Source of the DNA: Streptomyces hygroscopicus subsp. hygroscopicus
GTDB lineage: Bacteria; Actinomycetota; Actinomycetes; Streptomycetales; Streptomycetaceae
DNA: 64,000 nt
Assembly (NCBI RefSeq): GCF_030269125.1
Contig: NZ_BSSM01000001.1
Span: 248,001-312,000, forward strand
Direction: 5' to 3'
Shown here: positions 908 to 31,298 of the stretch, piece after piece
Position numbering within the stretch: the first letter of the stretch is position 1
Layout of the letters: each line of letters begins with the position of its first letter
The notes under the pieces: model-generated
What the model was told of the DNA's origin: nothing
The model's input: the letters and a program-made list of their open reading frames with translations, nothing else
Database searches by the model: none
Program-made: the position numbers and the translations under genes

Positions 908-939
908 GCGGCGACGACAACCATCTGATGGAGGTCACC

Positions 940-8393: not shown

Positions 8394-9665
8394 TCAGGTC
8401 CCGTTGAGACCGGCGGACGGCACCGCCTCGCCGGGGGCGGAGGCCGGGTGGCGGGGCACGGCGAGGAGCTTCAGCAGGGGGCTGGTCACCGCCGTCGTGA
8501 CCAGGGCCATCAGCACCAGGACGGTGAAGAGCCGGCCATGGATGATCCCGGCGCTCAACCCGACGTCGAGGGCGATGAGTTCGGTGAGCCCGCGGGTGTT
8601 GAGCAGCGCCGCGACGGTCGCCGACTGGCGCATGTCCAGGCCGTTCAGCCGGCTCGCCAGATAGCCGGGCACGAGTTTGCCCGCGAACGAGATCAGCAGG
8701 ATCAGGCAGAGCGCGAGCACACTGCTCCGGCCGATCGCGCCGATGTCCAGGGAAAGCCCGGTCACCACGAAGAACAGCGGCAACAGCAGGTCGGCGGTGC
8801 CCTCCATCGCGCGCAGCACGTCGGCGTCCGGCGCGCCGTCGCGGCGCGGCATGAGCAGCCCGGCCAGGAAACCGCCGAAGACCGCGTGCAGACCCAGTTC
8901 CGAGGTGGCCCAGGCGCAGCCCGTCGCGAGGACGATCGCCATGGGCAGCTGATGGGTGAACAGGCTGCCGGGCCGGTGGATCCACCAGTGCAGCAGCGGA
9001 CGGACGACCAGCGCGCCGCCCAGCGCGAGAGCGGCCGTCAGGGGGACGGTCAGTGAAGCCGGCAGGCCGTGCGGCCGACCCGGCATCGCCGTGGCCAGTA
9101 CGGTCCAGGCCGCCACGTCCATGAGACCGGCCGCGGACACCGCGACCAGGCCGGGGCGCGTGCCGGCGATCCCGAACTGCCGGACGATGGCCGCGAGTAC
9201 GGGCAACGCCGTGATCGAGACGGTGACGGCGATGAACACCACGAAGGGGCGTGCGCCGACGCCGTGTTCGCCGACCGAGGTGAAGACGGAGGGCAGGAGC
9301 AGGACCGTGGCCGCGCCCAGGCCCATCGGGACGAACAGGGCCGCGGCCGCCACCGACAGCGTCGTCCTGCCGCTGTCGCGCAGCAGCCGGAGGTTGAGCT
9401 CGTAGCCGACCACGAACATGAAGGTGACGATGGCGACCTGGGAGAGCACGCCGAGGTACGGCAGGACCTGCGGCGGGAACAGCCTGCCCGTCGGGTCCCC
9501 CGGGAGCCGGCCCAGCAGGGTCGGGCCGAGCGCCACCCCGGTCAGGATCTGTCCGATCACCGCGGGCTGGCCGAGGCGTGTGGCCAGCCCGCCGAGCAGC
9601 GATGAGACGAGCAGGATGACGGCGATGTCGCCCATGACGTAGGTGGTGACGGCCGCCACGCTCAC
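8394..9665 (-). CDS. Cation/proton antiporter (CPA2, KefB/NapA-like)
   Basis: 423 aa integral membrane protein with about 12 hydrophobic segments, of the monovalent cation:proton antiporter-2 family. A GHGVGAR loop, VSITALPVLAAIV and the C-terminal LLNTRGLTELI (family signature for the exchanger core) are visible. GTG at 9665 was chosen as start because it overlaps the NRPS2 stop (GTGA), indicating translational coupling; the reading frame continues further upstream inside NRPS2 but without membrane character. Coupling to NRPS2 suggests co-expression with the peptide pathway, perhaps for pH or cation balance or product export. That role is inference. Confidence 0.85.
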   Translation of the reverse strand: MSVAAVTTYVMGDIAVILLVSSLLGGLATRLGQPAVIGQILTGVALGPTLLGRLPGDPTGRLFPPQVLPYLGVLSQVAIVTFMFVVGYELNLRLLRDSGRTTLSVAAAALFVPMGLGAATVLLLPSVFTSVGEHGVGARPFVVFIAVTVSITALPVLAAIVRQFGIAGTRPGLVAVSAAGLMDVAAWTVLATAMPGRPHGLPASLTVPLTAALALGGALVVRPLLHWWIHRPGSLFTHQLPMAIVLATGCAWATSELGLHAVFGGFLAGLLMPRRDGAPDADVLRAMEGTADLLLPLFFVVTGLSLDIGAIGRSSVLALCLILLISFAGKLVPGYLASRLNGLDMRQSATVAALLNTRGLTELIALDVGLSAGIIHGRLFTVLVLMALVTTAVTSPLLKLLAVPRHPASAPGEAVPSAGLNGT

Positions 9666-14919: not shown

Positions 14920-16413
14920 ATGAAGACCATGAGCGCCGCGATTCCCGCGGCGGCCCGCCGTTCACGCTCGGTCCAGTGGATCGACGGCGACTGGCGCCCC
15001 GCGCAGTCCGACTCCGCCCTCCCGGTCGTGGATCCGGCGACCGGTCTCACCCTCGCGGAGGTGCCCGCCGGCGGGCGGGCCGATGTGAACGCCGCCGTCG
15101 CCGCCGCCGTCCGGGCGTTCCCCGCCTGGTCGGCGACACCGCTCGGGGAACGCCTGCGGTACCTCGACCGGCTCGCCGAACTGCTCGACCAGCACGCCGA
15201 CACCGTGGCCGGTGTGCTGACCGCGGAGACCGGGATGCCGGTGGCCCTGGCTCGGAACGCCCAGGTCTCCTTCGGCGTGGGTGCCCTCCGCTCGTGCGTG
15301 GAGGCGGCCCGGGAGCATGCCTGGGAGCAGCGGATCGGCAACTCGCTGGTGCGCTCCGAGGGCGCCGGGGCGGTGGGCTGCATCACCCCGTGGAACGCGC
15401 CGCTGGCGTTGAATCTGCAGAAGGTCCCGGCCGCGCTGGCGGCCGGCTGCACCGTGGTGCTCAAGCCGAGCGAACTGGCGCCGCTGAGCAGCTACTTGCT
15501 GGCCGAGCTGATCGCGCGGACCGACCTGCCCCCCGGTGTGTTCAACCTGGTGTGCGGGACCGGTCCGCAGGCCGGGGAGGCGCTGGCCGCCCACCCGGAG
15601 ATCGCCGTCGTCTCGCTGACCGGTTCGCTCCGCGCCGGACGGCGGGTCTCCGAGCTGGCCGCGCCCCGGGCCGCGCGGGTCAACCTCGAACTGGGCGGCA
15701 AGAGCGCCTCGATCGTGCTGCCCGACGCCGACCTGGGCGCCGCGGTGGCCGCGACCGTGCACCAGGCGAACTTCAACACCGGTCAGGTGTGTTTCGCCTG
15801 GAGTCGCCTCCTGGTCCCGGCCGACCGGTACGACGAGGCCGTGGCGGTCGCGGCCGGGACGGCCGGGGCCCTGCGCGTCGGCGACCCCTGGGACCCGGCC
15901 ACCCAGGTCGGACCGCTGATCCACCGCGCCTCGGCCGAGCGGGTGCGCGGCATCCTGGACGACGCGATCGACGGCGGCGCGACCCTGGTCACCGGTGGCG
16001 AGGTCCCGCCCGGGGCCGCCGGCGGCGGTTATCTGACCCCCGCGGTGCTCGCCGGCCTGCCACCGCGGGCGCGGGCGGTCGTCGAGGAGGTCTTCGGCCC
16101 GGTCGTCGTGGTGCTGCCGTACGCGGACGAGGACGACGCGGTCCGGATCGCCAACAACACCGACTACGGCCTGTCCGGCGCGGTGTGGTCCGACAGCGTC
16201 GAGCACGCCACCGTGATCGCGTCGCGGCTGCGCACCGGCCGGGTGGACGTCAACGGCGCCCCGTTCAACATGCGTGCGCCGTTCGGCGGTTACAGGAGTT
16301 CCGGCAACGGCCGTGAACTGGGCGCCTGGGGTCTGGCCGCCTTCTGCGAGACCAAGGCGATCCAGTTCCCCTCCGCCGAGGAGGGGCTCAGGCTCGGCTC
16401 CGCGGCGGGCTGA
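14920..16413 (+). CDS. Aldehyde dehydrogenase (NAD(P)+-dependent)
   Basis: 497 aa member of the ALDH superfamily, oxidising an aldehyde to a carboxylic acid. Visible: substrate/cofactor motif TPWNAPLALNLQKVPAALAAG, general base Glu in ELGGKS, catalytic Cys in NTGQVC, and EEVFGPVV near the C terminus. Length is normal. It is transcribed divergently from NRPS2 through a 107-bp region holding two activator-type repeats. In this cluster it could oxidise an indole-3-carbaldehyde to the acid loaded by NRPS1; that substrate is inference from context. Start ATG 14920 has no clear ribosome binding site; ATG 14929 in the same frame is an alternative. Confidence 0.93.
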   Translation: MKTMSAAIPAAARRSRSVQWIDGDWRPAQSDSALPVVDPATGLTLAEVPAGGRADVNAAVAAAVRAFPAWSATPLGERLRYLDRLAELLDQHADTVAGVLTAETGMPVALARNAQVSFGVGALRSCVEAAREHAWEQRIGNSLVRSEGAGAVGCITPWNAPLALNLQKVPAALAAGCTVVLKPSELAPLSSYLLAELIARTDLPPGVFNLVCGTGPQAGEALAAHPEIAVVSLTGSLRAGRRVSELAAPRAARVNLELGGKSASIVLPDADLGAAVAATVHQANFNTGQVCFAWSRLLVPADRYDEAVAVAAGTAGALRVGDPWDPATQVGPLIHRASAERVRGILDDAIDGGATLVTGGEVPPGAAGGGYLTPAVLAGLPPRARAVVEEVFGPVVVVLPYADEDDAVRIANNTDYGLSGAVWSDSVEHATVIASRLRTGRVDVNGAPFNMRAPFGGYRSSGNGRELGAWGLAAFCETKAIQFPSAEEGLRLGSAAG

Positions 16414-18254: not shown

Positions 18255-21200
18255 TCAGCGTTTGACGGCCGTGATCAGGGTGTGCTCCATCGGCAGCCCC
18301 CCGACGGCGTCGATCCGGTCGAATCCGGCCTTGCGCAGCATGCGTTCGTAGTCGGCGACCGGGTAGGCCATCCCCTCGCCCGTGGCGATCACGTTCAGGA
18401 ACAGGGACAGCGAGGTGGCGATGACCCCGCCCGCCTCGTCCGGGGCCGTGTTGCACGAATAGACCAGTACGCGGCCGCCGGGGCCGAGCGCGTCGTGGGC
18501 CTTGGCGAGCAGTGTCTCCACGCGCCGGGCGTCGAAGACGTCGAGCACGCTGCTGAACAGGATGGCGTCCATGCCGGGCGGGAACGGGTCGACGAACATG
18601 TCGCCCGGCTGGAAACGCACCCTGCCCTCCACGCCGGGTGGGAGTCCGCGCGCGGCCAGTTCCGTCACCGAGGGCAGGTCGAACACGGTGACCGTGATGC
18701 CCGGGTGGTGCCCGGCGATCGCGGCCGCCTTGGCACCGCTGCCCCCACCGACGTCGAGCAGGTGCCCGATGCCCTGGAGGTCCGCGGTGCGCAGCAGGCC
18801 GGGCATCTCCTGGTGGGCGAAAGCGGCGATCGACTGGTGCAGGATCGCCTCGGTCTCCGGGTCCGCGCCGAGCCGTTCGTAGACCGACCCGCCCTCGCCC
18901 GCGTGCACTTTCAGCCCGTCGTTGGTGCCCGACCGCAGCGCCTGGGTCGTATGGGCCATGCCGGCGTAGTCGGTGCGGTGGCGGGAGAGGAAGATGTTGC
19001 GCCAGCTTTCCGGGCCTCGCGGCGCGAGCAGCCGCTCCGCGATCGGCGCGTTCCGGTACCGCCCGTCGGTTCTGACGAGGAGGTCGATCGCGGACAGCGA
19101 GGCGAGCAGGACGCGCATCTTGTGCGGGGCGATGCCCGCCTGGTCCGCGAGTTCGTCGAGGGTGGCCCCGGGGTGCGCGGACAGGTGCCCGAACACGTCC
19201 AGCTCCAGGCCCGCGACGACGGCGTTGAACAGCGTGTGGCCGTGGGCGACGAGCAGGAACCGCTGGTATGCCTCGTCCTCGGAAGCGATCGCCATCGTGG
19301 TGTCCCTCTCCTGGCTCGGTTCGGACTGTTCGAGTTCGTCCAGCAGCGTCGCCACCTCCTCGTCGCTCATCGCGTCGACCTGGCGTTCGAGTTCGTCGGT
19401 GGTGTCCGCCTCGTCGATCAGCGCGGCCAGCGCTTCGACGGTCGGGGCGGCGAGGAAGGCGCCGAGGCCGATCGCGGCGCCGCGCTCGGTCACGACCCGG
19501 TGCAGCATCGTGACCGCGAGCAGGGAGTGTCCGCCGGCGCCGAAGAAGTCCTCGTGGACCGCGACCCGCTCGCGGTCCAGCAGTTCGGCCCAGAGCGCCG
19601 CCAGCCACCGCTGGGTCGGGGTGACCGGCTCGCCCCCGGCGTCCTCGGCGAGCCCGGTGTCCGCCAGGTCCCGCTCCGCCAGCGCGCGCCGGTCCACCTT
19701 GCCGCTGGCATTGTGCGGGAACTCCGGCACGGCGACGATCCGCGCCGGGACCATGTACGCGGGCAGCCAGGCGCGCACCGCGTCCTTCAGTTCGGACTCG
19801 CCGGCCGTCACGCCCTCCGCGAGCCGGACGAACGCCACGATCCGCAGGTCGCCGTCGCCGAACTCCCTGCCGAGGGCCACGGCCTCCCGCACCCGGTCGT
19901 CGCGCTCCAGCGCCGCCGCCGTCTCGTCCGGCTCGACCCGGTGTCCGCGGATCTTCAGCTGGTGGTCCCGGCGCCCGTGGCAGGTGAGCGAGCCGTCGGC
20001 GTGGCGGCGGAAGAGATCGCCGGTGCGGTACAGCCGCTCGCCGGTCACCGGATGCCGCACGAAACGCTCGGCGGTCAGCTCCGGCGCGCCGACGTAGCCG
20101 CGGGCGAGGCCGACGCCGCCGATGAACAGCTCCCCCAGCACACCGGGCGGCACCGGGCGCAGCTCGTCGTCCAGGACGTGCACGGTCGTCCCGGCGATCG
20201 GCGGACCGATCAGCGGCACCGCGCCGCCGTCCAGTCGCTGGGCCAGCGAGTAGACCGTCGTCTCCGCGGGACCGTACAGGTTCCAGACACGGCCGACGGC
20301 GGCGCGGAGTTCGTCGGCGAGTTCGGGGGGCAGTGCCTCTCCCCCGGAGAGCGCGGAACGCAGCCCGGACAGGTCGGCGCCGGCGTCGAGCAGCATCCGC
20401 CAGGTGGACGGCGTGCCGTGCTGCACCGTCACTCCCCGGAGGAGGGCCGCCAGCCGGTGCGGGTCCCGCGCGTCCGCACGCCGGCAGACGGTCACCGTCG
20501 CGCCGACGGCCGGCGGCAGGAACAGTTCGATGACCGAGCCGTCGAACGGGAGGCTGGCCAGGGCGAGGGTCACGTCGTCCGCGCCCATGACATCGAGACC
20601 GGCCATCGCGGCGAGGAAGTTCCCCAGACTGCGGTGCGTGACCGCGACGCCCTTCGGACGCCCCGTGGAGCCGGAGGTGTACATGATGTACGCGAGCCGG
20701 TCCGGGTCCTCGGACGCCCGGAACCGGGAGGGCGTACGGCGGGGCAGCTCGCGGACGTCCAGCGCCGGGGGCGCCTGATCGCCGAGGTCCGGCAGTTCGG
20801 CGCCCGCGGTCAGCATCAGCCGCGCGCCGCTGTCACCCAGCAGGTACGCCAGCCGCTCCGGCGGATACTCCAGTTCCAGCGGCAGGTACACGCCGCCGGC
20901 CTTCCAGACGCCGAGCACGGCCGGCAGCAACTCGATCGACCGGCCGGTGCCGACGGCCACCACGGGCTCGGTGCCGGTCACCCGCTCGCGGACCGCCGCC
21001 GCGATGGCGTCCGAGGCCGCTTCGAGCTCCGCGAAGCTGAGTACGGCGCCGTCGCAGCGCACCGCGGGCGCGTGCGGCCGCACCGCGACCTGCCGGGTGA
21101 ACAGCTCGCCGAACGTGACCGTGATCGCCGGCCGGGCCGGCACGGCGGCCGTCCGCAGCGCCGCGAGCCGCGCGGTCCGGGGCTCCAGCGTGTACCGCCC

Positions 21201-22661
21201 GACGGGCAGGTCGGGCTCCGCCGCGACGCCGGCCAACAGGGTGGCGTACTGGTCGAGCAACCGCTCGGCCGTCGGTCCGTCGTAGAGGTCGGTGTTGTAG
21301 TCGAGCCGTCCGCCGAGGCCGTCGCCGGACTGTTCCACGGTGAGTTCGAGGTCCAGCCGTGCGGTGTTGTTGCAGAACGCGACCGGGCACAGGGTCAGTT
21401 CGGGGGTGACCGGTACCTCCGCGTCTCCGAGCGGCAGGCTGCCCATGCTGAACAGCACCTGGTAGAGCGGGTTCCGGCTGGTGTCACGAGCGCCACCGAG
21501 CCGTTGGACGAGCGATCCGAACGGCAGGTCCTGGTCGTCGAGTCCGGCCAGGATGGCGCCCTGGACCCGGTCGACGAGCTCGCCGAACCGCGGCCCGCCG
21601 GTGGCGTCGATCCGCATCGGCAGGGTGTTGGCGAACGGGCCGATCAGCCCCTCGGTGCCCGGCAGCACCCGCCCGGACACCACCACCCCGAGGACCGCGT
21701 CGTCCAGGCCGCTGTACCGGGCGACGAGCACGTGCAGGGCCGCCAGCATGACCGGGAACAGCGTGACGCCGCGCTGCCTGGCCAGGTCGCGCAGTTCCGC
21801 GGCGACCGACGAGGGCAGCCGGAACGGAAGGCTGCGGCCGTTGAAGGTCTGCACCGGGGGGCGTTCGTGATCGGCGGGGACGAACGCGGCCGGGGCGCCG
21901 GCCAGCCGGGCCCGGCATGCCTCGATGCGGTCGTCGGCCTCGTCGAGGCGACGCCACTGCCAGGCGGCGAAGTCCGCGAACCGCACGGCCGGCGGCGGCA
22001 GTTCGGGGCGGCCGCCGGCCAGCCGGGCCCGATAGGCCGCGCCGAGTTCCTCGATGAGCACACCGACCGACCAGCCGTCGGCGGCGATGTGGTGCACGAT
22101 CCACAGCAGCAGGTGGTCGTGCGGCGCGAGCGGGATCAGCTCGCTGCGGACCACCGGACCGTTCTCCAGGTCGAACCGCAGGCGGGCGCGCTCCTCGGCG
22201 TAGGCGAACGCCGCCCGTTCCCGGTCGGCCTCCGTCGTGCCCCGCACCGGCACGACGGTCAGTTCGGGCGGCGGCCCGGGGACGGCCGTCGCGGTGCCGT
22301 CCACGAACCGGAAGCGGCAGGCGAGCACGTCGTGCCGATCGGTGACGTCCCGAAGGGCCCGCCGCAGCGCGGGCACCGACAGCGGACCGGTCAGCCGGAG
22401 CGCGAAGGGCACCACGTACGGGGCACCGTCACCGGACCACAGCCGGTCGAGGAACAGCTGATGGGCCTGGCCCGGACCGGCGGGCCGGGCCGCCGGCTCG
22501 GGCGGGTCCTGGCCCGGCCCGGCGGGCTCGGCCGCAGGCTCGGGGCCCCCGGTCGTGGGCTCGGGGCCCGTGGCGGCGGGGCCGTCGGCCCGCGCGCGTC
22601 CGAGGAACGCCGCGCGCTCGTCGGCCGTCATCCCGGCGAGCCGGTGGAGTGCGTTTCGCAT
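18255..22661 (-). CDS. NRPS3: C-A-PCP-O-methyltransferase
   Basis: 1468 aa elongation module. A Pro/Ala/Gly-rich N-terminal stretch (about 25-65) precedes a condensation domain with intact HHIAADG (near 189). The A domain (about 520-1000) has YTSGSTGRPKG (near 661) and FDGSVIE with the amino-binding Asp, so it loads an amino acid of unknown identity. PCP: GGHSLLA near 1044. From about residue 1123 the protein is a complete winged-helix/Rossmann O-methyltransferase of the acetylserotonin-OMT/TcmN type (LLDVGGGSG near 1299). An internal ATG at 19295 with AGGAGAG 10 nt upstream sits exactly at the start of this domain and could give a free methyltransferase. Start ATG 22661 is preceded by GAGAGGAG. 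Last gene of the NRPS4-exporter-NRPS3 operon. Confidence 0.9.
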   Translation of the reverse strand: MRNALHRLAGMTADERAAFLGRARADGPAATGPEPTTGGPEPAAEPAGPGQDPPEPAARPAGPGQAHQLFLDRLWSGDGAPYVVPFALRLTGPLSVPALRRALRDVTDRHDVLACRFRFVDGTATAVPGPPPELTVVPVRGTTEADRERAAFAYAEERARLRFDLENGPVVRSELIPLAPHDHLLLWIVHHIAADGWSVGVLIEELGAAYRARLAGGRPELPPPAVRFADFAAWQWRRLDEADDRIEACRARLAGAPAAFVPADHERPPVQTFNGRSLPFRLPSSVAAELRDLARQRGVTLFPVMLAALHVLVARYSGLDDAVLGVVVSGRVLPGTEGLIGPFANTLPMRIDATGGPRFGELVDRVQGAILAGLDDQDLPFGSLVQRLGGARDTSRNPLYQVLFSMGSLPLGDAEVPVTPELTLCPVAFCNNTARLDLELTVEQSGDGLGGRLDYNTDLYDGPTAERLLDQYATLLAGVAAEPDLPVGRYTLEPRTARLAALRTAAVPARPAITVTFGELFTRQVAVRPHAPAVRCDGAVLSFAELEAASDAIAAAVRERVTGTEPVVAVGTGRSIELLPAVLGVWKAGGVYLPLELEYPPERLAYLLGDSGARLMLTAGAELPDLGDQAPPALDVRELPRRTPSRFRASEDPDRLAYIMYTSGSTGRPKGVAVTHRSLGNFLAAMAGLDVMGADDVTLALASLPFDGSVIELFLPPAVGATVTVCRRADARDPHRLAALLRGVTVQHGTPSTWRMLLDAGADLSGLRSALSGGEALPPELADELRAAVGRVWNLYGPAETTVYSLAQRLDGGAVPLIGPPIAGTTVHVLDDELRPVPPGVLGELFIGGVGLARGYVGAPELTAERFVRHPVTGERLYRTGDLFRRHADGSLTCHGRRDHQLKIRGHRVEPDETAAALERDDRVREAVALGREFGDGDLRIVAFVRLAEGVTAGESELKDAVRAWLPAYMVPARIVAVPEFPHNASGKVDRRALAERDLADTGLAEDAGGEPVTPTQRWLAALWAELLDRERVAVHEDFFGAGGHSLLAVTMLHRVVTERGAAIGLGAFLAAPTVEALAALIDEADTTDELERQVDAMSDEEVATLLDELEQSEPSQERDTTMAIASEDEAYQRFLLVAHGHTLFNAVVAGLELDVFGHLSAHPGATLDELADQAGIAPHKMRVLLASLSAIDLLVRTDGRYRNAPIAERLLAPRGPESWRNIFLSRHRTDYAGMAHTTQALRSGTNDGLKVHAGEGGSVYERLGADPETEAILHQSIAAFAHQEMPGLLRTADLQGIGHLLDVGGGSGAKAAAIAGHHPGITVTVFDLPSVTELAARGLPPGVEGRVRFQPGDMFVDPFPPGMDAILFSSVLDVFDARRVETLLAKAHDALGPGGRVLVYSCNTAPDEAGGVIATSLSLFLNVIATGEGMAYPVADYERMLRKAGFDRIDAVGGLPMEHTLITAVKR

Positions 22662-22706: not shown

Positions 22707-24179
22707 CTAGGCGGTGGCCGGCAGCGCGTCGGTTCCGTCGGCTCCGTCGGCTCCGGCCACGGGCTTGATCGTGCGGTTGGTGATCGCGTAGCAGACGATC
22801 GCGCCCACCGCCAGCACCGCGCCTGCGATCACGAAGGAGAGTGACCGGCCCTGCTCGGCCGCCTTCGCGGCGCTCGTGCCCGAGCCGAGGAGCGCGTGCT
22901 CGTGGCTCAGTCCGATCGTCACGATCACCGACAGGCCCAAGGACTGGCTGATCTGCTGCAACGACGTCAGCACGCCCGAGCCCAGGCCCGCGTTCTGCGG
23001 AGAGACGCCGTCGAGCGCGGACAGCTGGAGCGCGGGGGCCGCGAGACCGGACCCGAACGCGGCGAGCGCCATCCCCGGCAGCAGCCCGGTGACGAAACCG
23101 CCGCCCCCGCCGAGCAGGCTGAAGAGGAAGATCCCGACCCCGATGACGAACAGCCCCGCCGACAGCAGCACCCGCGAGCCGACCACCGGCATCAGCTTGG
23201 TGGAGATCACCAGGCCGGGGATGAACAGCACGGTGTACGGCAGCCAGGCCAGGCCGCTCTCAAGCGGCGAGTAGTGCACGGTCTGCTGCATGTAGAGCAC
23301 CACGAGGAAGAACATCGCCGAGGTGGAGACCGCCATGAACACCTGCCCCGCGTACCCGGTCAACCGGGTGCGGCTGGTGAAGAACCGCAGCGGGATGAGC
23401 GGCGTCGCACTGCGCAGTTGCAGGAGCGCGAACACGGCGATGGCGAGGACGCCGCCGACCAGGGGACCGAGCACCGTGAGCCCGCTCCAGGGGTGGGTGA
23501 TGCCGCTGAGCAGGCCGTGCACCACCGCGACCATGCCGCCGGTCAGCAGCACGGCGCCGGGCCAGCTGGTCCGGCCCGCGCCGGTCTCCTTGCTCTCCGG
23601 CACCAGCCTGAGGGTCATCACCAGCGAGATCACGCACGGCGGGACACCGATGTAGAAGATCCAGTGCCAGCCGGCCAGGTCGGTGAGGACGCCGGACAGC
23701 AGCACGCCCGACGCGGCGCCGAGGCCGGCCAGCCCGCCCCAGATGCCCAGCGCCTTGGTCCGCTCGCGCTCGTCGGTGAACAGCAGCGCCACCATGGACA
23801 GGGCGGCGGGGGCCGCGAGCGCCTCACCGACGCCCTGCGCGAACCGGCTCCCGATGAGCATGGCCGACGAGGTGGACAGGGCGGCCGTGAGCGACGCCAC
23901 GGCCAGCAGCGCCGCACCCGCGGTGAACACGCGGCGGCGTCCGACGAGGTCGCCGAGCCGGCCGCCGAGCAGCAGCAGACCGCCCGCGGCGATCAGGTAG
24001 GCGTTGACCACCCAGGTCAGTTCGGACCGGCTCAGCCCCAGGTCGTGCTGGATCGAGGGCAGCGCGACGTTCACGTTCGTCGCGTCGAGAAAGATGATGA
24101 ACTGGACGAGGGCCAGTCCGATCAGCGCCTTCCAGCGAAGCGGGTTCGGTGCTGGTAAGGCCTCGGTGTCGCCAGCCAT
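22707..24179 (-). CDS. DHA2-family MFS drug exporter (EmrB/QacA type)
   Basis: 490 aa, 14 predicted membrane segments, proton-driven multidrug efflux of the DHA2 family. Visible motifs are LDATNVNVALPSI (motif D1), GGRLGDLVGRRRVF (motif A) and the antiporter motif C-like GIWGGLAGLGAASGVLLSG. It is the likely exporter and self-resistance pump for the NRPS product, placed between NRPS4 and NRPS3. ATG 24179 was chosen because AGGAG lies 5 nt upstream; an in-frame GTG at 24215 has no ribosome binding site and would leave only about 13 nt of leader after the candidate promoter. Confidence 0.92.
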   Translation of the reverse strand: MAGDTEALPAPNPLRWKALIGLALVQFIIFLDATNVNVALPSIQHDLGLSRSELTWVVNAYLIAAGGLLLLGGRLGDLVGRRRVFTAGAALLAVASLTAALSTSSAMLIGSRFAQGVGEALAAPAALSMVALLFTDERERTKALGIWGGLAGLGAASGVLLSGVLTDLAGWHWIFYIGVPPCVISLVMTLRLVPESKETGAGRTSWPGAVLLTGGMVAVVHGLLSGITHPWSGLTVLGPLVGGVLAIAVFALLQLRSATPLIPLRFFTSRTRLTGYAGQVFMAVSTSAMFFLVVLYMQQTVHYSPLESGLAWLPYTVLFIPGLVISTKLMPVVGSRVLLSAGLFVIGVGIFLFSLLGGGGGFVTGLLPGMALAAFGSGLAAPALQLSALDGVSPQNAGLGSGVLTSLQQISQSLGLSVIVTIGLSHEHALLGSGTSAAKAAEQGRSLSFVIAGAVLAVGAIVCYAITNRTIKPVAGADGADGTDALPATA

Positions 24180-24234
24180 CGGCACTCCTGGTTCGTCGCG
24201 CACGGTCAAGGTCACGGTCGGTGGGACGCGCGGT

Positions 24235-24266
24235 ACGGTACGAGCGAGCGGTTATCGGCCGGTTAC
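24235..24266 (-). promoter_or_regulatory. Direct-repeat activator site and -10 box, exporter
   Basis: On the minus strand GTAAC (24266-24262) and ATAAC (24255-24251) are 11 bp apart, followed after 10 bp by TACCGT (24240-24235). The first half-site contains the NRPS4 stop codon. It implies an internal promoter for exporter and NRPS3 in addition to read-through from NRPS4. Confidence 0.55.
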
Positions 24267-27200
24267 GCTGATCGAGATCGCAGACGGTCGGCCAGGCCCC
24301 GCAGCGTGCCCAACCGGTATACGTCGCCGACGGCCGGCCCCGCCAGACCCCGGGCGCGCAGCTCCGCGACGAACCTGCTGACGACCACCGAATTGCCGCC
24401 CGCGTCGAAGACGTTGTCGTCGCCGCGGATGCGCAGCCCCGTGAGCTGCTCCCAGATCTCGGTCAGTTGGTCCTCGGTCGGTACCGGGAGGAGGGGTGCG
24501 GCGGGGGCCGCGGATCGCGCCGGGACGGCGGAAGTCGCCGGGGCAGCGGGAGCCGCCGGGACGGCGGAAGCCGCGGGGATGCCGGAAGCCGCGGGGATGC
24601 CGGAAGCCGCGGGGACACCGGAAGCCGCGGGGACACCGGACCCCGCCGCAACGCCTGACGCGGGGTCAGGACCGGGCCGCGGCAGCCGTGCCCGGTCGAG
24701 CTTGCCGTTCGCCGTCAGCGGCAAGGCGTCGAGCGCGGTGATCGTGGCCGGAACCATGTACTCGGGCAGCAGCGCTCGTACCCGGTGCCGGATCGTCGGC
24801 GGGTCCACTCCCGCGGGCGTCACATAGGCGTCGAGTCGGGCGGCGTCCGGTGTACCGCCGACCACCACCGCCGCGGCGGTGACGCCGTCCGCGGCGAGCA
24901 GCGCGGCCCGCACCTCGCCGAGTTCGATCCGGTAGCCGCGGAGCTTGACCTGATCGTCCAGCCGGCCCAGGTGCTCGACCGTCCCGTCGGGGAGCATCCG
25001 GCCGCGGTCCCCGCTGCGGTACACCCGCGTGCCGTCCTCGTCCACGCCGAAGCGTTCGGCGGTCAGGTCGTCCAGGCCGAGATAGCCGAGCGCCACCCCC
25101 ACCCCGCCCACGTGGATCTCCCCCGGCACCCCGGGCGGAAGGAGCCGGCCGGCCCGGTCCCGGATGGACAGCGACTCCCCGGGCAGCGGCACGCCCACCG
25201 AACGCGACGCCGTCTCGGCCATCCGCGGCGTCACCGTGGTCCAGGTGCTGTGCACCGTGGTCTCGGTGATGCCGTAGAGGTTGACGAGGCGGCACAGGTG
25301 CGGCGGATGACGCCGGAACCAGGGCAGGAGCGCCCGGGTGTCGAGCGGTTCCCCGCCGAACGTGACCAGGCGCACCGCCAGTACGGACGACGCGTCGCGG
25401 TCGGCTTCGGCCAGCATGCCGAAGGCGGTGGGCGTCTGGTTCAGGATCGTCACCCGCTCCTCGGCGAGCAGCCGGTGCAGCTCCTCCGGGACGCGGGTCA
25501 CCCGCCGCGGCACCACGACGAGCCGGCCCCCCGTGGTCAGCGCGCCCCAGATCTCCCACACGGACATGTCGAACGCGACCGAGTGGAAGAACGCCCAGAC
25601 GTCACGGTCGGCGAACGCGAACTCGGTGCCGGTGCCCGCGATCAGCGCGGTGACGCTGCGGTGGGCGACCACGACCGGCTTCGGCGTTCCGGTCGAACCC
25701 GAGGTGCAGATGACGTACGCCGCGTCGCCCGCGTCACCGGTGCGGGCCGGCGGTGTCGGCGGCTGCCGTTCGGCGAGGCCGGCGAGCGAGGCGGGCGACA
25801 CGCTCCGCCAGGTGCCGGCCGGGAAGTCCGCCGACGCCGTCACCACGAGCCGGGGGGTGCCGGCGCGGGCCGTCCGCGCCAGCCGCTGCGGCGGGTTGTC
25901 CGGCTCCATGGGCAGGTACGCCGCTCCCGCGCGCAGCACCCCGAGCAGCACCACCACCAGCTCCCAGCCCCGGGCCATGCAGACGCCGACGCGGTCGCCG
26001 TGCTCGACGCCGAGTTCCCGCAGCGCTCGGGCGACCCGGTTCGCGGCCTGGTCCAGGCTGCCGTAACTGAGCCTGCTGTTGCGGTCGGTGATCGCCGTGG
26101 CGTCCGGCCGCTCGGCGGCGCGGGCGGCGACGAGGTCGTCGATCCTCCTGCGTTCGGCGGGCGGTTCGCCCCCGTCGCCCAGTCGCCTGACCCGTGATCT
26201 GCCGGCGGCGTCCAGCAGTTCGAGGCCGGCCAGATCACCCTTCCCCGCGGCCAGTTGTCCGGCGACGTGGACGACGGCGCTCCCGAACCGGTCACCGGCC
26301 TGCCGGCCGATCGGTCCGCCGCCGACGGCCGTGGTGAGGCCGGTGCCCACGGCCAGGGTGAGCGGGAACTCGGTGTCCCCCGCCTCGTGGAACCGGACCT
26401 CCACGGCCGGGGCGCCGTCGCCCAGCATGCTCGCGAGGACGGGACCGAATCGTGGCCACGTCCCTTCGAGCGCCTCCTCCGCGACGGCGAGCAGCGCGGC
26501 GACCGGGGTCTCCGGGTCGGTCGGGAAGGCGACCAGGGCCGGGCGCCGTGCCGCCGCGCTCTCGCGCAGGGCCAGTACGGTGACCGGCAGGCCGTGGTAC
26601 CTGCCGAGGACGACCGCGGCCGCCGCGAGCACGCGGTGCCGGGGCACCGGCCCCAGGTCGTGCGTGCTTCGGGATGCCGGTTCGGCGGGCTCCGGGAGCC
26701 CCCAGTCGGGCGCCGGGTACTGCGCGGCGAGCAGCGTGCCGACGCGGTCCTCGGCGCCGTCGGCCAGCCACTCGATCAGCTCCAGGACCGGACCGGAGTC
26801 GTCCGCCAGGTACATGTGGCCACCGGCGACCTCGGCGTACCGCAGCGGACGGGTCGTCGCTTCCTGCCAGCGGGCCGAGTCGGCGGCGCTCACCAGGGCG
26901 TCGGCCGCTCCGCGCAGCACGGTGACCGGCACGTCGAGAGGGGTCACCGAGGTCCGCCGGTAGTTCTCGTACATCTCCTGGTCGGCCCGGAGCACCGGCA
27001 GCAGCAGTGCGGCCATCTCGGGGTCGGCCAGCGCGGGATGAGCGTAACCGGCCAGTTCCTCCAGCCGCGCCAGGAACTCCCGGTCCGGCAGCCCGGTGGT
27101 GCGGCGGTGCCGGGGCACGGTGGGGCCGGGCGTGCCACTGATGATCAGATGCCGGAGCCGCACGCCGTGTTCGAGGAGCAGTCCGGCCAGCTCGAAGGCG

Positions 27201-30160
27201 ACGGTGCCGCCCAGGCAGTGGCCGACCAGCACGGCCTCGTCCCGGCCGTCGAGGGCCGAGAGGACCCGGGGCAACAGGTCGGCGGCCGCCGCGGCCACCG
27301 TGCGGTGCGGCGGCTCGCCGAACCGCTTGTCGTGCCCGGCCAGGTCGGGCGCGATGATCTCGACGTCGCCGCGGACCTGCCAGGGACGGAAGAACGACGC
27401 GCCGGCGCCGGTGTGCGGAAGACAGACGACCGGCAGCCGGACCGCCGGGGCCGCGGCGACCGTCGCGCCGATGACACGCGCCAGCTCCGCGGCGTGGTCC
27501 CGGGCGAAGTAGTGACCGCCGCCCGCCACGAGTTCGAGCCGCACGGTCTCGGCGAACACCGACCAGCCGCGGTAGCCGTGTTCCGGATCCGGGGTGACGG
27601 GATCGGCGGTTCCCAGCACACAGTGCAGCGGGGCGCGCAGCCGCGCTCCCGGTGACTTGTGCGCCGCGGCCTGGAACCGTGTCGCGCCCGCCATGTCGTG
27701 CCGTACCGCGGCGAGCACCTGATGGCGATCGGCCTCGTCGAGTGGGCCGTCGAAGCCGCCGATGGCCTTGATGTAGGCGTAGAACTCGTCGCCCGAGCTG
27801 CCGGTGACGCGGGCCAGGTTCGCCTCGGCGTCCGGGTCGGTCAGGCTGGCACCGACATGGACGGCGCGCAGGTCGGCACCCCGGGCCTCCAGTTCGCGGG
27901 CCACCGCCACCGCGAGGGACGCGCCCGCGCAGTGCCCGTAGACCATGACGGCTCCGGACACGCGCTCCCGGACCTCGTCGGCCAGTCGCGAGACCGCCTC
28001 GTCGAACTCCAGGAACTCGCCGTCGTCGCCCTCGTGTCCGGGCAGGCTCGCCGCCCACAGCCGGAACCGCGGCGGCAGGGCGTCCGCGAGCGGCTGGTAG
28101 GCGGTCGCGGCCCCGCCCGCGTAGGGGATCGCGATGACGGTGGTGTCGGCCGCGGAGTCGTCGCCGGTGAGCGGCCAGAGCAACCGGTCGGCCGACGGCC
28201 GCGCCCCGTCGGCCAGGTAGGCGGCGAGCGCGGCGGCGGTCCGGTGGCGGAACAGCTCGGCGAGCGGCACGCCGCCCCCGAGCAGCCGGCGCACCTTGAG
28301 CGCGGCGAAGGAGTTGCCGCCCAGGTCGAAGAAGTCGCTGTGCGGATGCACCTCGTCCGCGCCCAGCACCTCCCGCCAGGCGTGCCGGACCCGCTCCAGC
28401 ATCTCCGGCGCGGTGTCCCCGACGGCCTCGGCGGCGGGTCCCGGGTCCTCGACGGCCTCCGGCTCGGGCACCGTGCCTTCGGCGGTCTCCCCCTCGCGCG
28501 CGGTCCCCGCGACGGCCTCCCCCTCCCGCGCGGCACCGCCGACGACGCCCCCGGGAGCCGGGTCGGCCTCCTCGACACCCCCCGAAGCCGGAGCGCTCCC
28601 CTCGACCACATCCGAAGCCAGAGCGGCCCCCTCGACCGCACCCCGAGCCGGAGCGGTCTTCTCGCCGGCCTCGGGAGCCGGGGCGGCGACCGTCACGGCC
28701 GTGCTCACCCGGGCCGGGGGGCGCGGCGGCTCGGGCAGCAGGAGGTCCCCGATCCCGCGGTCGGGGCGGGCCGCCACCGCGTCGGCCACCAGCGCGTACA
28801 TCGCGGCGAGCCGCTCGGCGGTCGCCGGATCGAACAGGTCCCGGGCGTAGACGAGATCCAGCACGAGCGCTCCGGCGTCGGCGCGCACCATGAAGTTGAG
28901 GTCGAACTTGGCGGCCCTCAGCTCCGGGACGAGGCCCTTGACGGTCAGTCCGTCGTAGGCGGGCAGTCGTTGGTACGCGGTGGACCCGCCGTCACTCTCC
29001 TCGAGCTGGACGTGCACCCGGATCAGCGGCGTCCGGGTGCCGGACCGCTCCGTGCGCAGGGCGTCGACGAGCAGTCCGAAGGGCAGCGCGCTGCCCTCGT
29101 AGTCGGCGATCAGGTCACGCCGTGTGCGCGCGAGCACCTGCCGGAACGTCGGGTTTCCCGAGAGGTCCGCACGGACCGGGAACGCGTTGGTGAACAGCCC
29201 GATCAGATGGCGCAGTTCGGGTTGCTGGCGCTGGGCGACGGTGGAGCCGAACAGGAGGTCGCGCCGCCCGGTGCAGCGGGCGAGCAGAACGGCGAGCAGC
29301 GCGGCGACGGTCATGAACCGGGACGCGCCCTCCGCTCGGGCGATCCGGTCGAGACGGTCCACGGTGGGTTCGGGAATCGTCGCCCGGCACAGGTCGCCCT
29401 CGGCCGTTCGTGCCGGATCGTCGGGACGGTCGGTCGGCAGCGTCATCTCCGCGCCGTCGAGCCGGGTACGCCAGTAGCCGGTCAGCCGCTCCCGTTCCGC
29501 CGCGTCGAGCCGGTCCCGTTGCCAGCACGCGAAGTCCGCGTACTGGACGGGGAGCGGGGGGAGCGCCGAAGGAACCCCGCGCACCGCCGCGTTGTAGCCG
29601 TCCGCGAGTTCGGCGTGCAGGAGCGGGACCGACCAGCCGTCGCAGGCGATGTGGTGCACGGTGAGCAGGAGCAGGTGGTCCCGCGGGGCGAGCCGGAGGA
29701 GTTCCGCGCGCAGGACGGGGCCGGTACCGAGGTCGAAGCGGGCCGTCTGCGCCGCGGCGAGCCGCCGGGGGACCTCCTCGGCGGCCGAGCCGGTGAGGTC
29801 GAGGACCGGCAGCGGCACCGGGGCGGGCGCGCCGACGACTTGGTACAGCACGCCGTCGTGCTCGGTGAACGTGGTGCGCAGCGCCTCGTGCCGCTCGACG
29901 ACCCGGGTCAGCGCGCCACGCAGGGCGCCGGTGTCGAGGGGGCCGCGGAGCGAGACCGGAAGCGGCACATTGTACGCGGACGAGCCCTGTTCGAGCTCGG
30001 TGACCATCCACAGCCCGGCCTGCGCGTACGAGGCGGGCACGACCGGGCCGGCCGGGCTCCGCCGAAGGATGCCGGACCGGTTCGACCGGCGCTGGGCGAG
30101 CGCCTTCAGCAGCCGCGCGCGTTCGGGTGAGCGTGCCGGCGGGGGAGGGACGATCGTCAC
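24263..30160 (-). CDS. NRPS4: C-PCP-TE-TE-A-PCP with Cys thioesterases
   Basis: 1965 aa, GTG start with AGGAG 7 nt upstream. Order: condensation domain (HHIACDG near 172), Ala/Gly/Glu linker (about 480-580), PCP1 (LGGNSFAA, Ser near 616), two thioesterase domains (about 660-895 and 905-1130), a degenerate C-domain tail (about 1170-1320), an A domain (about 1330-1850; CTSGSTGTPKP, FDMSVWE with intact Asp), an Ala/Pro repeat linker and PCP2 (AGGNSVVV near 1924). Both TEs have Cys in the nucleophile elbow instead of Ser: Cys744 in GHCAGAS and Cys982 in GHCLGG, with partner Asp (GTADPV; GAADAL) and His (GGGHYF; AGGHMY) present. No A domain sits between C and PCP1, so the C-terminal A domain probably loads PCP1 in trans or passes cargo through PCP2. 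Likely the release enzyme of the pathway. Confidence 0.88.
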   Translation of the reverse strand: MTIVPPPPARSPERARLLKALAQRRSNRSGILRRSPAGPVVPASYAQAGLWMVTELEQGSSAYNVPLPVSLRGPLDTGALRGALTRVVERHEALRTTFTEHDGVLYQVVGAPAPVPLPVLDLTGSAAEEVPRRLAAAQTARFDLGTGPVLRAELLRLAPRDHLLLLTVHHIACDGWSVPLLHAELADGYNAAVRGVPSALPPLPVQYADFACWQRDRLDAAERERLTGYWRTRLDGAEMTLPTDRPDDPARTAEGDLCRATIPEPTVDRLDRIARAEGASRFMTVAALLAVLLARCTGRRDLLFGSTVAQRQQPELRHLIGLFTNAFPVRADLSGNPTFRQVLARTRRDLIADYEGSALPFGLLVDALRTERSGTRTPLIRVHVQLEESDGGSTAYQRLPAYDGLTVKGLVPELRAAKFDLNFMVRADAGALVLDLVYARDLFDPATAERLAAMYALVADAVAARPDRGIGDLLLPEPPRPPARVSTAVTVAAPAPEAGEKTAPARGAVEGAALASDVVEGSAPASGGVEEADPAPGGVVGGAAREGEAVAGTAREGETAEGTVPEPEAVEDPGPAAEAVGDTAPEMLERVRHAWREVLGADEVHPHSDFFDLGGNSFAALKVRRLLGGGVPLAELFRHRTAAALAAYLADGARPSADRLLWPLTGDDSAADTTVIAIPYAGGAATAYQPLADALPPRFRLWAASLPGHEGDDGEFLEFDEAVSRLADEVRERVSGAVMVYGHCAGASLAVAVARELEARGADLRAVHVGASLTDPDAEANLARVTGSSGDEFYAYIKAIGGFDGPLDEADRHQVLAAVRHDMAGATRFQAAAHKSPGARLRAPLHCVLGTADPVTPDPEHGYRGWSVFAETVRLELVAGGGHYFARDHAAELARVIGATVAAAPAVRLPVVCLPHTGAGASFFRPWQVRGDVEIIAPDLAGHDKRFGEPPHRTVAAAAADLLPRVLSALDGRDEAVLVGHCLGGTVAFELAGLLLEHGVRLRHLIISGTPGPTVPRHRRTTGLPDREFLARLEELAGYAHPALADPEMAALLLPVLRADQEMYENYRRTSVTPLDVPVTVLRGAADALVSAADSARWQEATTRPLRYAEVAGGHMYLADDSGPVLELIEWLADGAEDRVGTLLAAQYPAPDWGLPEPAEPASRSTHDLGPVPRHRVLAAAAVVLGRYHGLPVTVLALRESAAARRPALVAFPTDPETPVAALLAVAEEALEGTWPRFGPVLASMLGDGAPAVEVRFHEAGDTEFPLTLAVGTGLTTAVGGGPIGRQAGDRFGSAVVHVAGQLAAGKGDLAGLELLDAAGRSRVRRLGDGGEPPAERRRIDDLVAARAAERPDATAITDRNSRLSYGSLDQAANRVARALRELGVEHGDRVGVCMARGWELVVVLLGVLRAGAAYLPMEPDNPPQRLARTARAGTPRLVVTASADFPAGTWRSVSPASLAGLAERQPPTPPARTGDAGDAAYVICTSGSTGTPKPVVVAHRSVTALIAGTGTEFAFADRDVWAFFHSVAFDMSVWEIWGALTTGGRLVVVPRRVTRVPEELHRLLAEERVTILNQTPTAFGMLAEADRDASSVLAVRLVTFGGEPLDTRALLPWFRRHPPHLCRLVNLYGITETTVHSTWTTVTPRMAETASRSVGVPLPGESLSIRDRAGRLLPPGVPGEIHVGGVGVALGYLGLDDLTAERFGVDEDGTRVYRSGDRGRMLPDGTVEHLGRLDDQVKLRGYRIELGEVRAALLAADGVTAAAVVVGGTPDAARLDAYVTPAGVDPPTIRHRVRALLPEYMVPATITALDALPLTANGKLDRARLPRPGPDPASGVAAGSGVPAASGVPAASGIPAASGIPAASAVPAAPAAPATSAVPARSAAPAAPLLPVPTEDQLTEIWEQLTGLRIRGDDNVFDAGGNSVVVSRFVAELRARGLAGPAVGDVYRLGTLRGLADRLRSRSA
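24565..24636 (-). repeat. 18-bp tandem repeats in NRPS4 linker
   Basis: Four 18-bp units (24565-24582, 24583-24600, 24601-24618, 24619-24636), identical except for the last few bases, encode PAASG(V/I) hexapeptides between the A domain and the terminal PCP. Degenerate copies flank them. In-frame flexible linker. Confidence 0.9.
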
Positions 30161-30193: not shown

Positions 30194-30225
30194 ACCGTAG
30201 GCAGGCGCGGTTAGCCGGGGGTTAT
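30194..30225 (-). promoter_or_regulatory. Direct-repeat activator site and -10 box, NRPS4 operon
   Basis: On the minus strand ATAAC (30225-30221) and CTAAC (30214-30210) are 11 bp apart, followed after 10 bp by TACGGT (30199-30194). The NRPS4 GTG start is 34 nt further. The upstream half-site includes the stop codon of the glycosylase-like gene. Confidence 0.6.
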
Positions 30226-31298
30226 GCGGCGAGGAACCGGGCGATGTCGCGGAGTTCCGCGTCGAGGGCCGCCTGGCCGGCACCGGCCGGGCCGCCGTCG
30301 AACGGCTCCAGGGCGACGGCACGTGTCCGGTCCCGGCGCCAGACCCCGCGGACCAGGCCGTCCACGACGACGGTGGGGCTGATCTGACCGCCGCCCGGCC
30401 AGACCCTGCGCTCGTGCTCGGGCTCGACGGACAGCCGGCGGTCCGCGAATCCCACCAGGTAGTTGTCGTAGGCCGGCAGCAACCGGACGTCGCCCACCGG
30501 CTCCGGGCCCGGCGGAGCGTCGGCCGGCAGCGCGTGGTCGTCCAGGTCGCCGACGCGGCACGGTTCGATCAGACCGGCCCCGAGCAGGTCCCGCCACGCG
30601 GGGCGGGCAGCGGGCAGCCCGAGCCCGGACCAGGTGGCGAAGTCGGCCACGGTCGCCGGTCCGTGGGCCGCCAGATAGCGGTGCAGCAGCTCTTTGACCG
30701 CGTCAGGGCCGGAGGGTCCGGCAGAGGCGGGCAGCCAGTCCTTCGCGAGGACGTAGGTGGCGGAGCCGTCCTCCCGGACCGGACCGAAGCAGACGGTACC
30801 GAGGAGGGCGGACCGGCGGACGAGGTGGAACGGGACCTGCCCGGAGGCGTCGAGGCCCGCGTCGGTCATCCGCACCGCGAGTTCGTCCCGGGTCAGCGGG
30901 CCGTCGGCGAGCGCCTCGGCGATCACCCGCTCCCCCCGCCCCAGCTCGGCGGGTCCGAGCCCCAGCTCCCGGTAGCGGCGCTCGCCTCGGCGCAGCAGTC
31001 GGGGAGCGAGCAGTTCGCGGAGCCAGCCCGCGTCACGGGCCGGGACCAGGTACAGCGTGCCGCGCATGAACCAGCCCCGGACCAGAGTGCGCTCGGCGCC
31101 GAGCGCCCGGTACACGTCCGCCTCGGTCAGCCCGGAGCCGCGCGCCCTGACCCCGAGCGCGGCCGCCCTCAGATCCTGCGCCTGCACGGCCAGACACCGC
31201 TCCAGGACAGCGGCCACGGACGCCGCGCGCCACGCGCCACCCACGCCCTGCGACCACGCCCGGAGCAGTCTGGCCCCACCCGGTCCCAGCTCCCGCAC
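30222..31298 (-). CDS. AlkZ/YcaQ-like winged-helix DNA glycosylase (HTH_42)
   Basis: 358 aa protein of the winged helix DNA-binding (HTH_42, DUF1006) family that includes AlkZ of the azinomycin producer and E. coli YcaQ/AlkX, which excise alkylated or cross-linked bases. The family's catalytic QxQ-type motif is visible as AVQAQDLRAA near residue 37, and the C-terminal VDGLVRGVWRR strand-turn is typical. GTG start with AGGGGG upstream. It is on the same strand as, and 61 bp before, NRPS4, with its stop inside the NRPS4 promoter repeat. Paralogues are common in Streptomyces, so it may be housekeeping; a self-resistance role would imply a DNA-reactive product. Confidence 0.82.
   Translation of the reverse strand: MRELGPGGARLLRAWSQGVGGAWRAASVAAVLERCLAVQAQDLRAAALGVRARGSGLTEADVYRALGAERTLVRGWFMRGTLYLVPARDAGWLRELLAPRLLRRGERRYRELGLGPAELGRGERVIAEALADGPLTRDELAVRMTDAGLDASGQVPFHLVRRSALLGTVCFGPVREDGSATYVLAKDWLPASAGPSGPDAVKELLHRYLAAHGPATVADFATWSGLGLPAARPAWRDLLGAGLIEPCRVGDLDDHALPADAPPGPEPVGDVRLLPAYDNYLVGFADRRLSVEPEHERRVWPGGGQISPTVVVDGLVRGVWRRDRTRAVALEPFDGGPAGAGQAALDAELRDIARFLAA

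What the first reader, a model, noticed from the sequence alone, without database searches (positions are those of the whole stretch)
24263..30160. C-PCP-TE-TE-A-PCP synthetase with two Cys-nucleophile thioesterases
Tandem TEs occur in the middle of the protein rather than at the end, both with GHCxG elbows (Cys744, Cys982) and complete Asp/His partners, followed by an A domain and a terminal PCP. Cys-TEs are known from strained-ring release, as in obafluorin beta-lactone formation. The preceding module lacks its own A domain, so loading must be in trans from the downstream A domain.
Basis: partly seen in the sequence, partly recalled or inferred. Interest (0 to 1): 0.75.

Follow-up and report, generated by a model that had tools for sequence, protein, structure and literature searches.

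The report
Self-loading NRPS with two cysteine thioesterases
A peptide-making enzyme of a Streptomyces gene cluster seems to carry, in one chain, a part that loads an amino acid, a thioesterase-like part that probably carries it to another site, and a second thioesterase that may release the product as a reactive small ring.

Summary

The cluster is JBIR-34/35 (fmo)-like: an FmoA3 homologue fused to an SHMT, a halogenase, an AlkZ-like glycosylase.

The two TEs differ in origin. TE1 groups with the beta-lactone-forming ObiF1 TE. TE2 belongs to a mostly stand-alone type II TE family (66 of 69 distinct fetched relatives have Ser) whose genes often sit beside X-A(Thr-like)-PCP genes and A-less C-PCP modules.

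Best reading: A loads Thr (or Ser) on PCP2, TE2 carries it to PCP1 as stand-alone LgnA does, C condenses, TE1 releases, probably as a beta-lactone. The shuttle is well supported by analogy, the lactone is plausible; neither is shown. The layout may already be drawn in the fmo paper, which I could not read. New variant of a known kind.

The parts
24263..30160 (-). whole synthetase, C-PCP1-TE1-TE2-X-A-PCP2, 1965 aa
28733..30040 (-). condensation domain, residues 41-476, HHxxxDG intact
28205..28408 (-). PCP1 (acceptor carrier; its module has no A domain), Ser617
27452..28159 (-). TE1, ObiF1-like Cys thioesterase, residues 668-903, Cys744/Asp853/His883
26756..27445 (-). TE2, type II-like thioesterase, proposed aminoacyl shuttle, residues 906-1135, Cys982/Asp1087/His1115
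26156..26743 (-). X: reduced condensation-like piece, residues 1140-1335, with a PxWGL motif also found in separate X-A-PCP proteins
24671..26143 (-). adenylation domain, residues 1340-1830, motif-read code DMWNVFLVHK (Thr-like)
24266..24490 (-). PCP2 (proposed donor carrier), Ser1924
30222..31298 (-). AlkZ-like DNA glycosylase, beside the synthetase in all three clusters compared
22707..24215 (-). MFS transporter
18255..22661 (-). NRPS C-A-PCP with a C-terminal O-methyltransferase domain
14920..16413 (+). aldehyde dehydrogenase of the cluster
9662..14812 (-). FmoA3-like Cy-A-PCP fused to a serine hydroxymethyltransferase
1724..7582 (+). NRPS A-PCP-Cy-methyltransferase; the ORF start overlaps the halogenase, so the true start is later
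928..2574 (+). tryptophan halogenase family protein
1..879 (+). cytochrome P450, cut by the window edge

Best explanation
A terminal NRPS module that carries its own amino-acid supply. The A domain activates L-Thr (or a close beta-hydroxy amino acid such as Ser) and loads PCP2 next to it. TE2 takes the aminoacyl group onto Cys982 and passes it to PCP1, which has no A domain. The C domain joins it to the upstream peptide (halogenated indole-methyloxazoline-X). TE1 takes the peptide onto Cys744 and releases it by attack of the residue's beta-hydroxyl, giving an N-acyl-amino beta-lactone that may later open to the acid. Shown by sequence: the domains, intact triads, A-less module, family placement. 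Inferred: substrate, upstream peptide, shuttle, lactone. My separate odds: shuttle 0.7, lactone 0.5.
For: Shuttle: of 71 TE2-like rows of at least 40% identity (69 distinct), 43 (41 distinct) lie within 8 kb of an A domain at least 50% identical to this A. An A-less C-PCP module is seen in 21 of 38 regions with that cassette against 3 of 28 without (Fisher p 2.3e-4; relatives are not independent). Five genomes have [A-PCP-C-PCP-TE1][TE2][X-A-PCP] as adjacent same-strand genes. Frankia has [C-PCP-TE1-TE2] overlapping [X-A-PCP]. LgnA, a type II TE, moves Thr from an A-PCP protein to an A-less C-PCP (PMC8748450). Ser of PCP2 is kept in S. malaysiense. Substrate: the code of this A and of the cassette A domains reads D(F/M/L)W(N/S)..(M/L)VH, Thr-like as I recall such codes. 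Lactone: ObiF1 is the best solved relative of TE1 (5.8e-44; next 3.6e-23), tops the fold search of the TE1-TE2 model, falls on TE1's side of the tree and shares its triad places. 25 of 29 related Cys TEs with an A domain in their own module have Ser-, Thr- or alpha-methylserine-like codes; 12 of 12 Ser-type relatives have DIWQ-type codes. Tambromycin C equals tambromycin A plus pantetheine less water, as a thiol-opened lactone, or a thioester carried off the enzyme, would.
Against: No activity is shown for either TE. LgnA uses Ser and stands alone; here the nucleophile is Cys and the domain is fused. I had no LgnA, SyrC or CmaE sequence to compare. Tambromycin A fits the free acid (my formula, fitted to the reported m/z). 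ObiF1 Arg1190, whose loss cuts its output about tenfold, is Ser788 here. The TE1s of the five unfused genomes do not group with this TE1, and the tree tool flags ObiF1 as a long row of unsure place. The Cys/Ser split in the TE1 clade may be one event, so its tie to codes is not independent evidence; 4 of 29 Cys TEs have other codes. JBIR-34 is reported to hold Ala and Ser, not Thr. 17 of 38 cassette regions showed no A-less module.
Confidence: 0.45

Rival explanations
1. The shuttle works as above, but TE1 simply hydrolyses the peptide to the linear acid.
For: Tambromycin A, from a related cluster type, fits the free acid (my formula); Arg1190 of ObiF1 is not kept.
Against: In ObiF1 the Cys gives the lactone and Cys-to-Ser gives the acid only (PMC6668435 passages); this clade keeps Cys with mostly beta-hydroxy terminal codes.
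Confidence: 0.3
2. TE2 is an ordinary editing thioesterase that became fused; the A domain loads PCP1 directly.
For: TE2's nearest solved relatives are type II TEs such as RifR; use of another module's A domain by an A-less module is reported for capreomycin (PMC12400406, abstract in the listing).
Against: Then PCP2 would be needless, yet the domain is kept in all three clusters and its Ser in the two Streptomyces; the family tracks with A-less modules.
Confidence: 0.15
3. TE1 and TE2 are a tandem release pair and X-A-PCP2 is an ordinary further or starter module.
For: Tandem release TEs are known in lipopeptide synthetases (recalled), and a tri-TE architecture is reported for enduracidin (PMC13320435, abstract in the listing).
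Against: X is far shorter than a C domain; TE2 does not group with TE1; Frankia and five other genomes have X-A-PCP as a separate gene.
Confidence: 0.07

Closest known systems
LgnA/LgnB/LgnD of legonindolizidine (PMC8748450)
   Same: type II TE, donor A-PCP, A-less C-PCP acceptor, Thr as cargo (here predicted)
   Different: there a Ser nucleophile and three separate proteins; here Cys and one chain; sequences not compared
ObiF/ObiF1 of obafluorin (PMC6668435)
   Same: GHCAG, Asp in the later of the two known places, mid-protein TE followed by an A domain in P. fluorescens ObiF
   Different: ObiF has its own A in the module and an MbtH-like part, and no second TE; Arg1190 is Ser788 here
JBIR-34/35 (fmo) and tambromycin clusters
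   Same: FmoA3-like Cy-A-PCP, alpha-methylserine-type SHMT, AlkZ-like gene; chlorinated indole and methyloxazoline products
   Different: ten tambromycin-like genomes (by gene content) have a plain C-A-PCP-TE1; here the SHMT is fused to the NRPS; I have not seen the fmo terminal module
SyrC and CmaE aminoacyltransferases
   Same: move aminoacyl groups between carriers (CmaE: PMC8748450 introduction); Cys nucleophile (recalled)
   Different: stand-alone; sequences not compared here

Membership tests
LgnA-type aminoacyl-shuttling TEII | type II TE family | tested here: met
   RifR best, 3e-32; groups with RifR apart from TE1 and ObiF1
LgnA-type aminoacyl-shuttling TEII | GHSxG with Ser nucleophile | tested here: not met
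   GHCLG, Cys982
LgnA-type aminoacyl-shuttling TEII | stand-alone protein | tested here: not met
   fused in one 1965-aa ORF
LgnA-type aminoacyl-shuttling TEII | donor A-PCP and A-less C-PCP acceptor present | tested here: met
LgnA-type aminoacyl-shuttling TEII | falls in the LgnA clade | not tested
   LgnA's sequence was not at hand
LgnA-type aminoacyl-shuttling TEII | transfers the aminoacyl group | not testable with these tools
   needs purified protein
ObiF1-type beta-lactone TE | Cys nucleophile with Asp1254/His1284-like partners | tested here: met
   Cys744/Asp853/His883 align
ObiF1-type beta-lactone TE | sequence kinship with the ObiF1 TE | tested here: met
   39% identity, 5.8e-44; on one side of a starred branch with it, inner order unresolved and ObiF1 flagged as a long row
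ObiF1-type beta-lactone TE | Arg1190 equivalent | tested here: not met
   Ser788; in ObiF1 its loss slows but does not stop the enzyme, so I do not take it as defining
ObiF1-type beta-lactone TE | makes a beta-lactone | not testable with these tools
   needs assay
fmo (JBIR-34/35)-type cluster | FmoA3 homologue | tested here: met
   2059 bits over residues 1-1115 to the chain of 6LTA-6LTD; 6LTD is named FmoA3
fmo (JBIR-34/35)-type cluster | SHMT, halogenase, AlkZ-like gene | tested here: met
   AlkZ-like gene in those clusters per PMC9040887
fmo (JBIR-34/35)-type cluster | product JBIR-34/35 | not testable with these tools
   no metabolite data

The most novel reading that the evidence does not exclude
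A one-chain self-loading module: a type II thioesterase turned into a built-in Cys aminoacyl shuttle, paired with a beta-lactone-forming Cys TE; and the JBIR-34/tambromycin family is made as reactive beta-lactones of which the reported compounds are opened forms, which would explain the AlkZ-like repair gene in these clusters.
Probability: 0.3. Interest if true: 0.8.

Novelty: new variant of a known kind. Interest (0 to 1): 0.6.

Why it matters
If true, a between-protein shuttle step known from stand-alone LgnA has been built into one polypeptide, giving a compact system for studying and engineering carrier-to-carrier transfer. It would also give a testable answer to why JBIR-34/35 and tambromycin clusters, with products said to have no known function (PMC9040887 passage), carry an AlkZ-type DNA repair gene: a beta-lactone is a reactive electrophile.

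Tried and rejected
Assembly chimera: rejected. A dead TE: not supported by sequence. Two TEs by recent duplication: rejected, TE1 and TE2 lie on opposite sides of a strongly supported branch. A stepwise fusion series (five unfused genomes, then Frankia, then Streptomyces): attractive, but the TE1s of the five do not group with this TE1, so I claim only the same gene order. Cys in TE2 unique to this cluster: rejected; the own genome's stand-alone TE beside an X-A-PCP gene, about 34 kb upstream of the window edge, has GHCFG (37% identity, so below the cut). NCBIfam gave no specific family for either TE.

Limits. Gene calls in fetched regions come from a simple GC-by-codon script, so starts are rough. 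A-domain codes were read by motif or alignment, not by a trained predictor; the meanings of the codes (Ser, Thr, other) are recalled. The regions fetched are the stronger hits, not all of them; those searches scored at most 10 and 4 candidates per genome. In one search two of the 71 rows are repeats (L061 of L024, L076 of L057). In one search the codes shown for L024, L121, L128, L132, L148 and L166 belong to the upstream module; I left these six out of the 29, and also the repeats L182, L181, L184, L183, L076 and L061. L170, a Cys member in the tree, was missed by gene calling and is in no count. The tree used 95 of 149 rows found, TE2 rows being sampled. The script's motif reader gave a wrong letter or none for L139 and 14 TE1s; for these I used and the sequences printed. 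The three regions without cassette but with an A-less module (L037, L122, L141) may have a cassette beyond the fetched ends. I did not count how many X-A-PCP proteins lack the PxWG motif (one search lists only those with it).

Literature. Muliandi 2014 (fmo) and Goering 2016 (tambromycin) are not held, so the domain layout may be in print there. Searches for the layout as text gave no relevant paper; tambromycin with beta-lactone gave one screening review (listing only).
Full report
What is there. The ORF 24263-30160 (-) codes for 1965 aa with the order C (41-476), PCP1 (589-649), TE1 (~668-903), TE2 (~906-1135), X (~1140-1335), A (1346-1820) and PCP2 (~1891-1965). Cys744 and Cys982 sit in GHCAG and GHCLG, with Asp853/His883 and Asp1087/His1115 as partners. 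A 486-residue model of TE1-TE2 has mean pLDDT 88 and pTM 0.61.

It is real and under selection. Streptomyces malaysiense MUSC 136 (L076; the unnamed G385, regions L057/L058, has a contig of the same length and is taken as the same) has the same protein at 80% identity in a colinear cluster. Between the two, dN/dS is 0.25 for C, 0.30 for TE1, 0.26 for TE2, 0.38 for A, 0.40 for PCP2 and 0.80 for X, and all 12 active residues checked are identical. The fused TE1-TE2 is rare: among 392 sampled genomes of the genus only the own genome and G385 match over the whole TE1-TE2 stretch in one long open frame; three more match over most of it, G005 and G269 with a stop inside and G276 as a 528-aa frame of its own (E 1e-40 cut, four candidates scored per genome). 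Among 394 sampled genomes of the class two match at E 1e-60 or better, the own genome and G598. Among 35 genomes of G598's family, three match at 1e-45; G598 covers both TEs in one open frame, G460 covers residues 72-475 with a stop inside, G142 only TE2. G598 is probably the Frankia named next.

The Frankia canadensis locus (L077) is the key comparison. The same cluster is present, but the protein is split: a 1086-aa C-PCP-TE1-TE2, whose stop overlaps, by my reading of the printed DNA (ATGA), the start of an X-A-PCP gene (its A and PCP confirmed by Pfam). TE1 and TE2 there are 62% and 60% identical to the window's, and the SHMT is a separate gene.

The cluster. Residues 1-1115 of the product of 9662-14812 match FmoA3 of JBIR-34/35 biosynthesis (chain of PDB 6LTA-6LTD, 2059 bits, name). 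In the window this Cy-A-PCP is fused to a serine hydroxymethyltransferase, which the 1153-aa FmoA3 chain lacks. A halogenase, P450, A-PCP-Cy-MT, aldehyde dehydrogenase, C-A-PCP-OMT, MFS transporter and AlkZ-like glycosylase complete it. Passages of PMC9040887 say that the JBIR-34/35 and tambromycin clusters carry AlkZ-like genes and that the function of their products is unknown. Ten further genus genomes have FmoA3-like Cy domains at 49-52% identity. In the three that I looked at over 40 kb, the gene content resembles this cluster; in all ten the TE1-like domain ends a plain C-A-PCP-TE1 protein, cut by the region's end in one.

TE1 and TE2 are different families. TE1: best solved relative ObiF1 (5.8e-44; next BorB 3.6e-23; SulM TE 8.1e-18, BorB named); 89 of 229 aligned residues identical; ObiF1 also tops the fold search of the pair. 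TE2: best is RifR (3e-32). In a tree of 95 of 149 rows, the two lie on opposite sides of a branch with SH-aLRT 100, TE1 with ObiF1 and TE2 with RifR (quick method, no bootstrap; ObiF1 flagged as a long row).

What TE2 does. Among 71 TE2-like rows of at least 40% identity in the fetched regions, 67 have Ser and 4 have Cys. Without two repeats these are 69: 66 Ser and 3 Cys, the three being the window, S. malaysiense and Frankia. 43 of the 71 rows (41 of 69) lie within 8 kb of an A domain at least 50% identical to this one. Those A domains read D(F/M/L)W(N/S)..(M/L)VH, like Thr codes (43 rows, repeats included). An A-less C-PCP module is seen in 21 of 38 regions with the cassette and 3 of 28 without (Fisher p 2.3e-4); related genomes are not independent. 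In five genomes the order is [A-PCP-C-PCP-TE1][TE2][X-A-PCP], adjacent and on one strand, the unfused counterpart of this protein, though their TE1s group elsewhere and their TE2s have Ser. Nineteen distinct X-A-PCP proteins hold a PxWG(L/R)-type motif like that of X (20 rows, two being one gene); those without it were not counted, and the own genome's second X-A-PCP lacks it.

The precedent is LgnA (PMC8748450; abstract, introduction, two results sections and discussion read): a type II TE with Ser77-Asp184-His212 that becomes loaded with Thr and passes it from the A-PCP of LgnB to the A-less C1-PCP1 of LgnD. The present protein has donor, shuttle and acceptor in one chain. TE2 is not filed as an LgnA-type member, since its nucleophile is Cys and it is not stand-alone; I propose that it works like LgnA.

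What TE1 does. The ObiF1 TE (PMC6668435, passages) makes a beta-lactone from a beta-hydroxy residue; its Cys-to-Ser form gives the acid; thiols trap the lactone as a thioester. SulM and ObiF1 share the later Asp place (PMC11298585, passages), as does TE1: Asp853 aligns with Asp1254, and the other place holds Ala771. In related proteins with an A domain in the TE's own module, 25 of 29 Cys-type TEs have Ser-like (13), alpha-methylserine-like (10) or Thr-like (2) codes and 4 have others; all 12 Ser-type TEs have DIWQ-type codes. The ten alpha-methylserine-like ones are close relatives of one another, and that reading rests on a code like that of the FmoA3-like A domain and on tambromycin: PMC8466323 (passages) gives m/z 536.1907 for A and formulae for B and C. 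C24H30ClN5O7 for A is my own fit to the m/z; A less B is then one alpha-methylserine residue, and C equals A plus pantetheine less water. A lactone opened by pantetheine fits, but so does a thioester carried off the enzyme, so this is only suggestive. Against the lactone: Arg1190 of ObiF1 is Ser788 here, and tambromycin A fits the acid.

Verdict. The new point is that TE2 is most likely an in-built aminoacyl shuttle. This makes the protein a new variant of known parts rather than a new kind. I could not exclude that the layout is drawn in the fmo paper, which is not held.

Noticed in passing
L021:3361-6417 (own genome, C1:211361-214417): A second, stand-alone Cys TE (GHCFG) directly followed by an X-A-PCP gene with a Thr-like code, about 34 kb upstream of the window edge, beside an S9 peptidase gene.
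   Followed up: partly
window 9662-14812: Serine hydroxymethyltransferase fused to the C-terminus of an FmoA3-like Cy-A-PCP; a separate gene in Frankia (L077) and in the three tambromycin-like clusters looked at.
   Followed up: partly
L039:7755-13976 and L040:7678-13233: C-A-PCP-TE (Cys) proteins with an MFS transporter domain fused at the C-terminus and Ser-like codes.
   Followed up: partly
L059:11181-12674: A 497-aa stand-alone tandem TE-TE protein near an X-A-PCP gene.
   Followed up: no
L026:14785-19176, L060:10986-15523, L066:5491-9995: Stand-alone TE2-like gene, SDR gene (mycofactocin-coupled type in L060 and L066) and X-A-PCP gene in a row, a recurring cassette.
   Followed up: partly
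window 44030-56157: A KS-AT-ACP protein followed by a protein with aminotransferase, luciferase-like monooxygenase, C-A-PCP and another C domain: a PKS-NRPS pair, perhaps a separate cluster.
   Followed up: no
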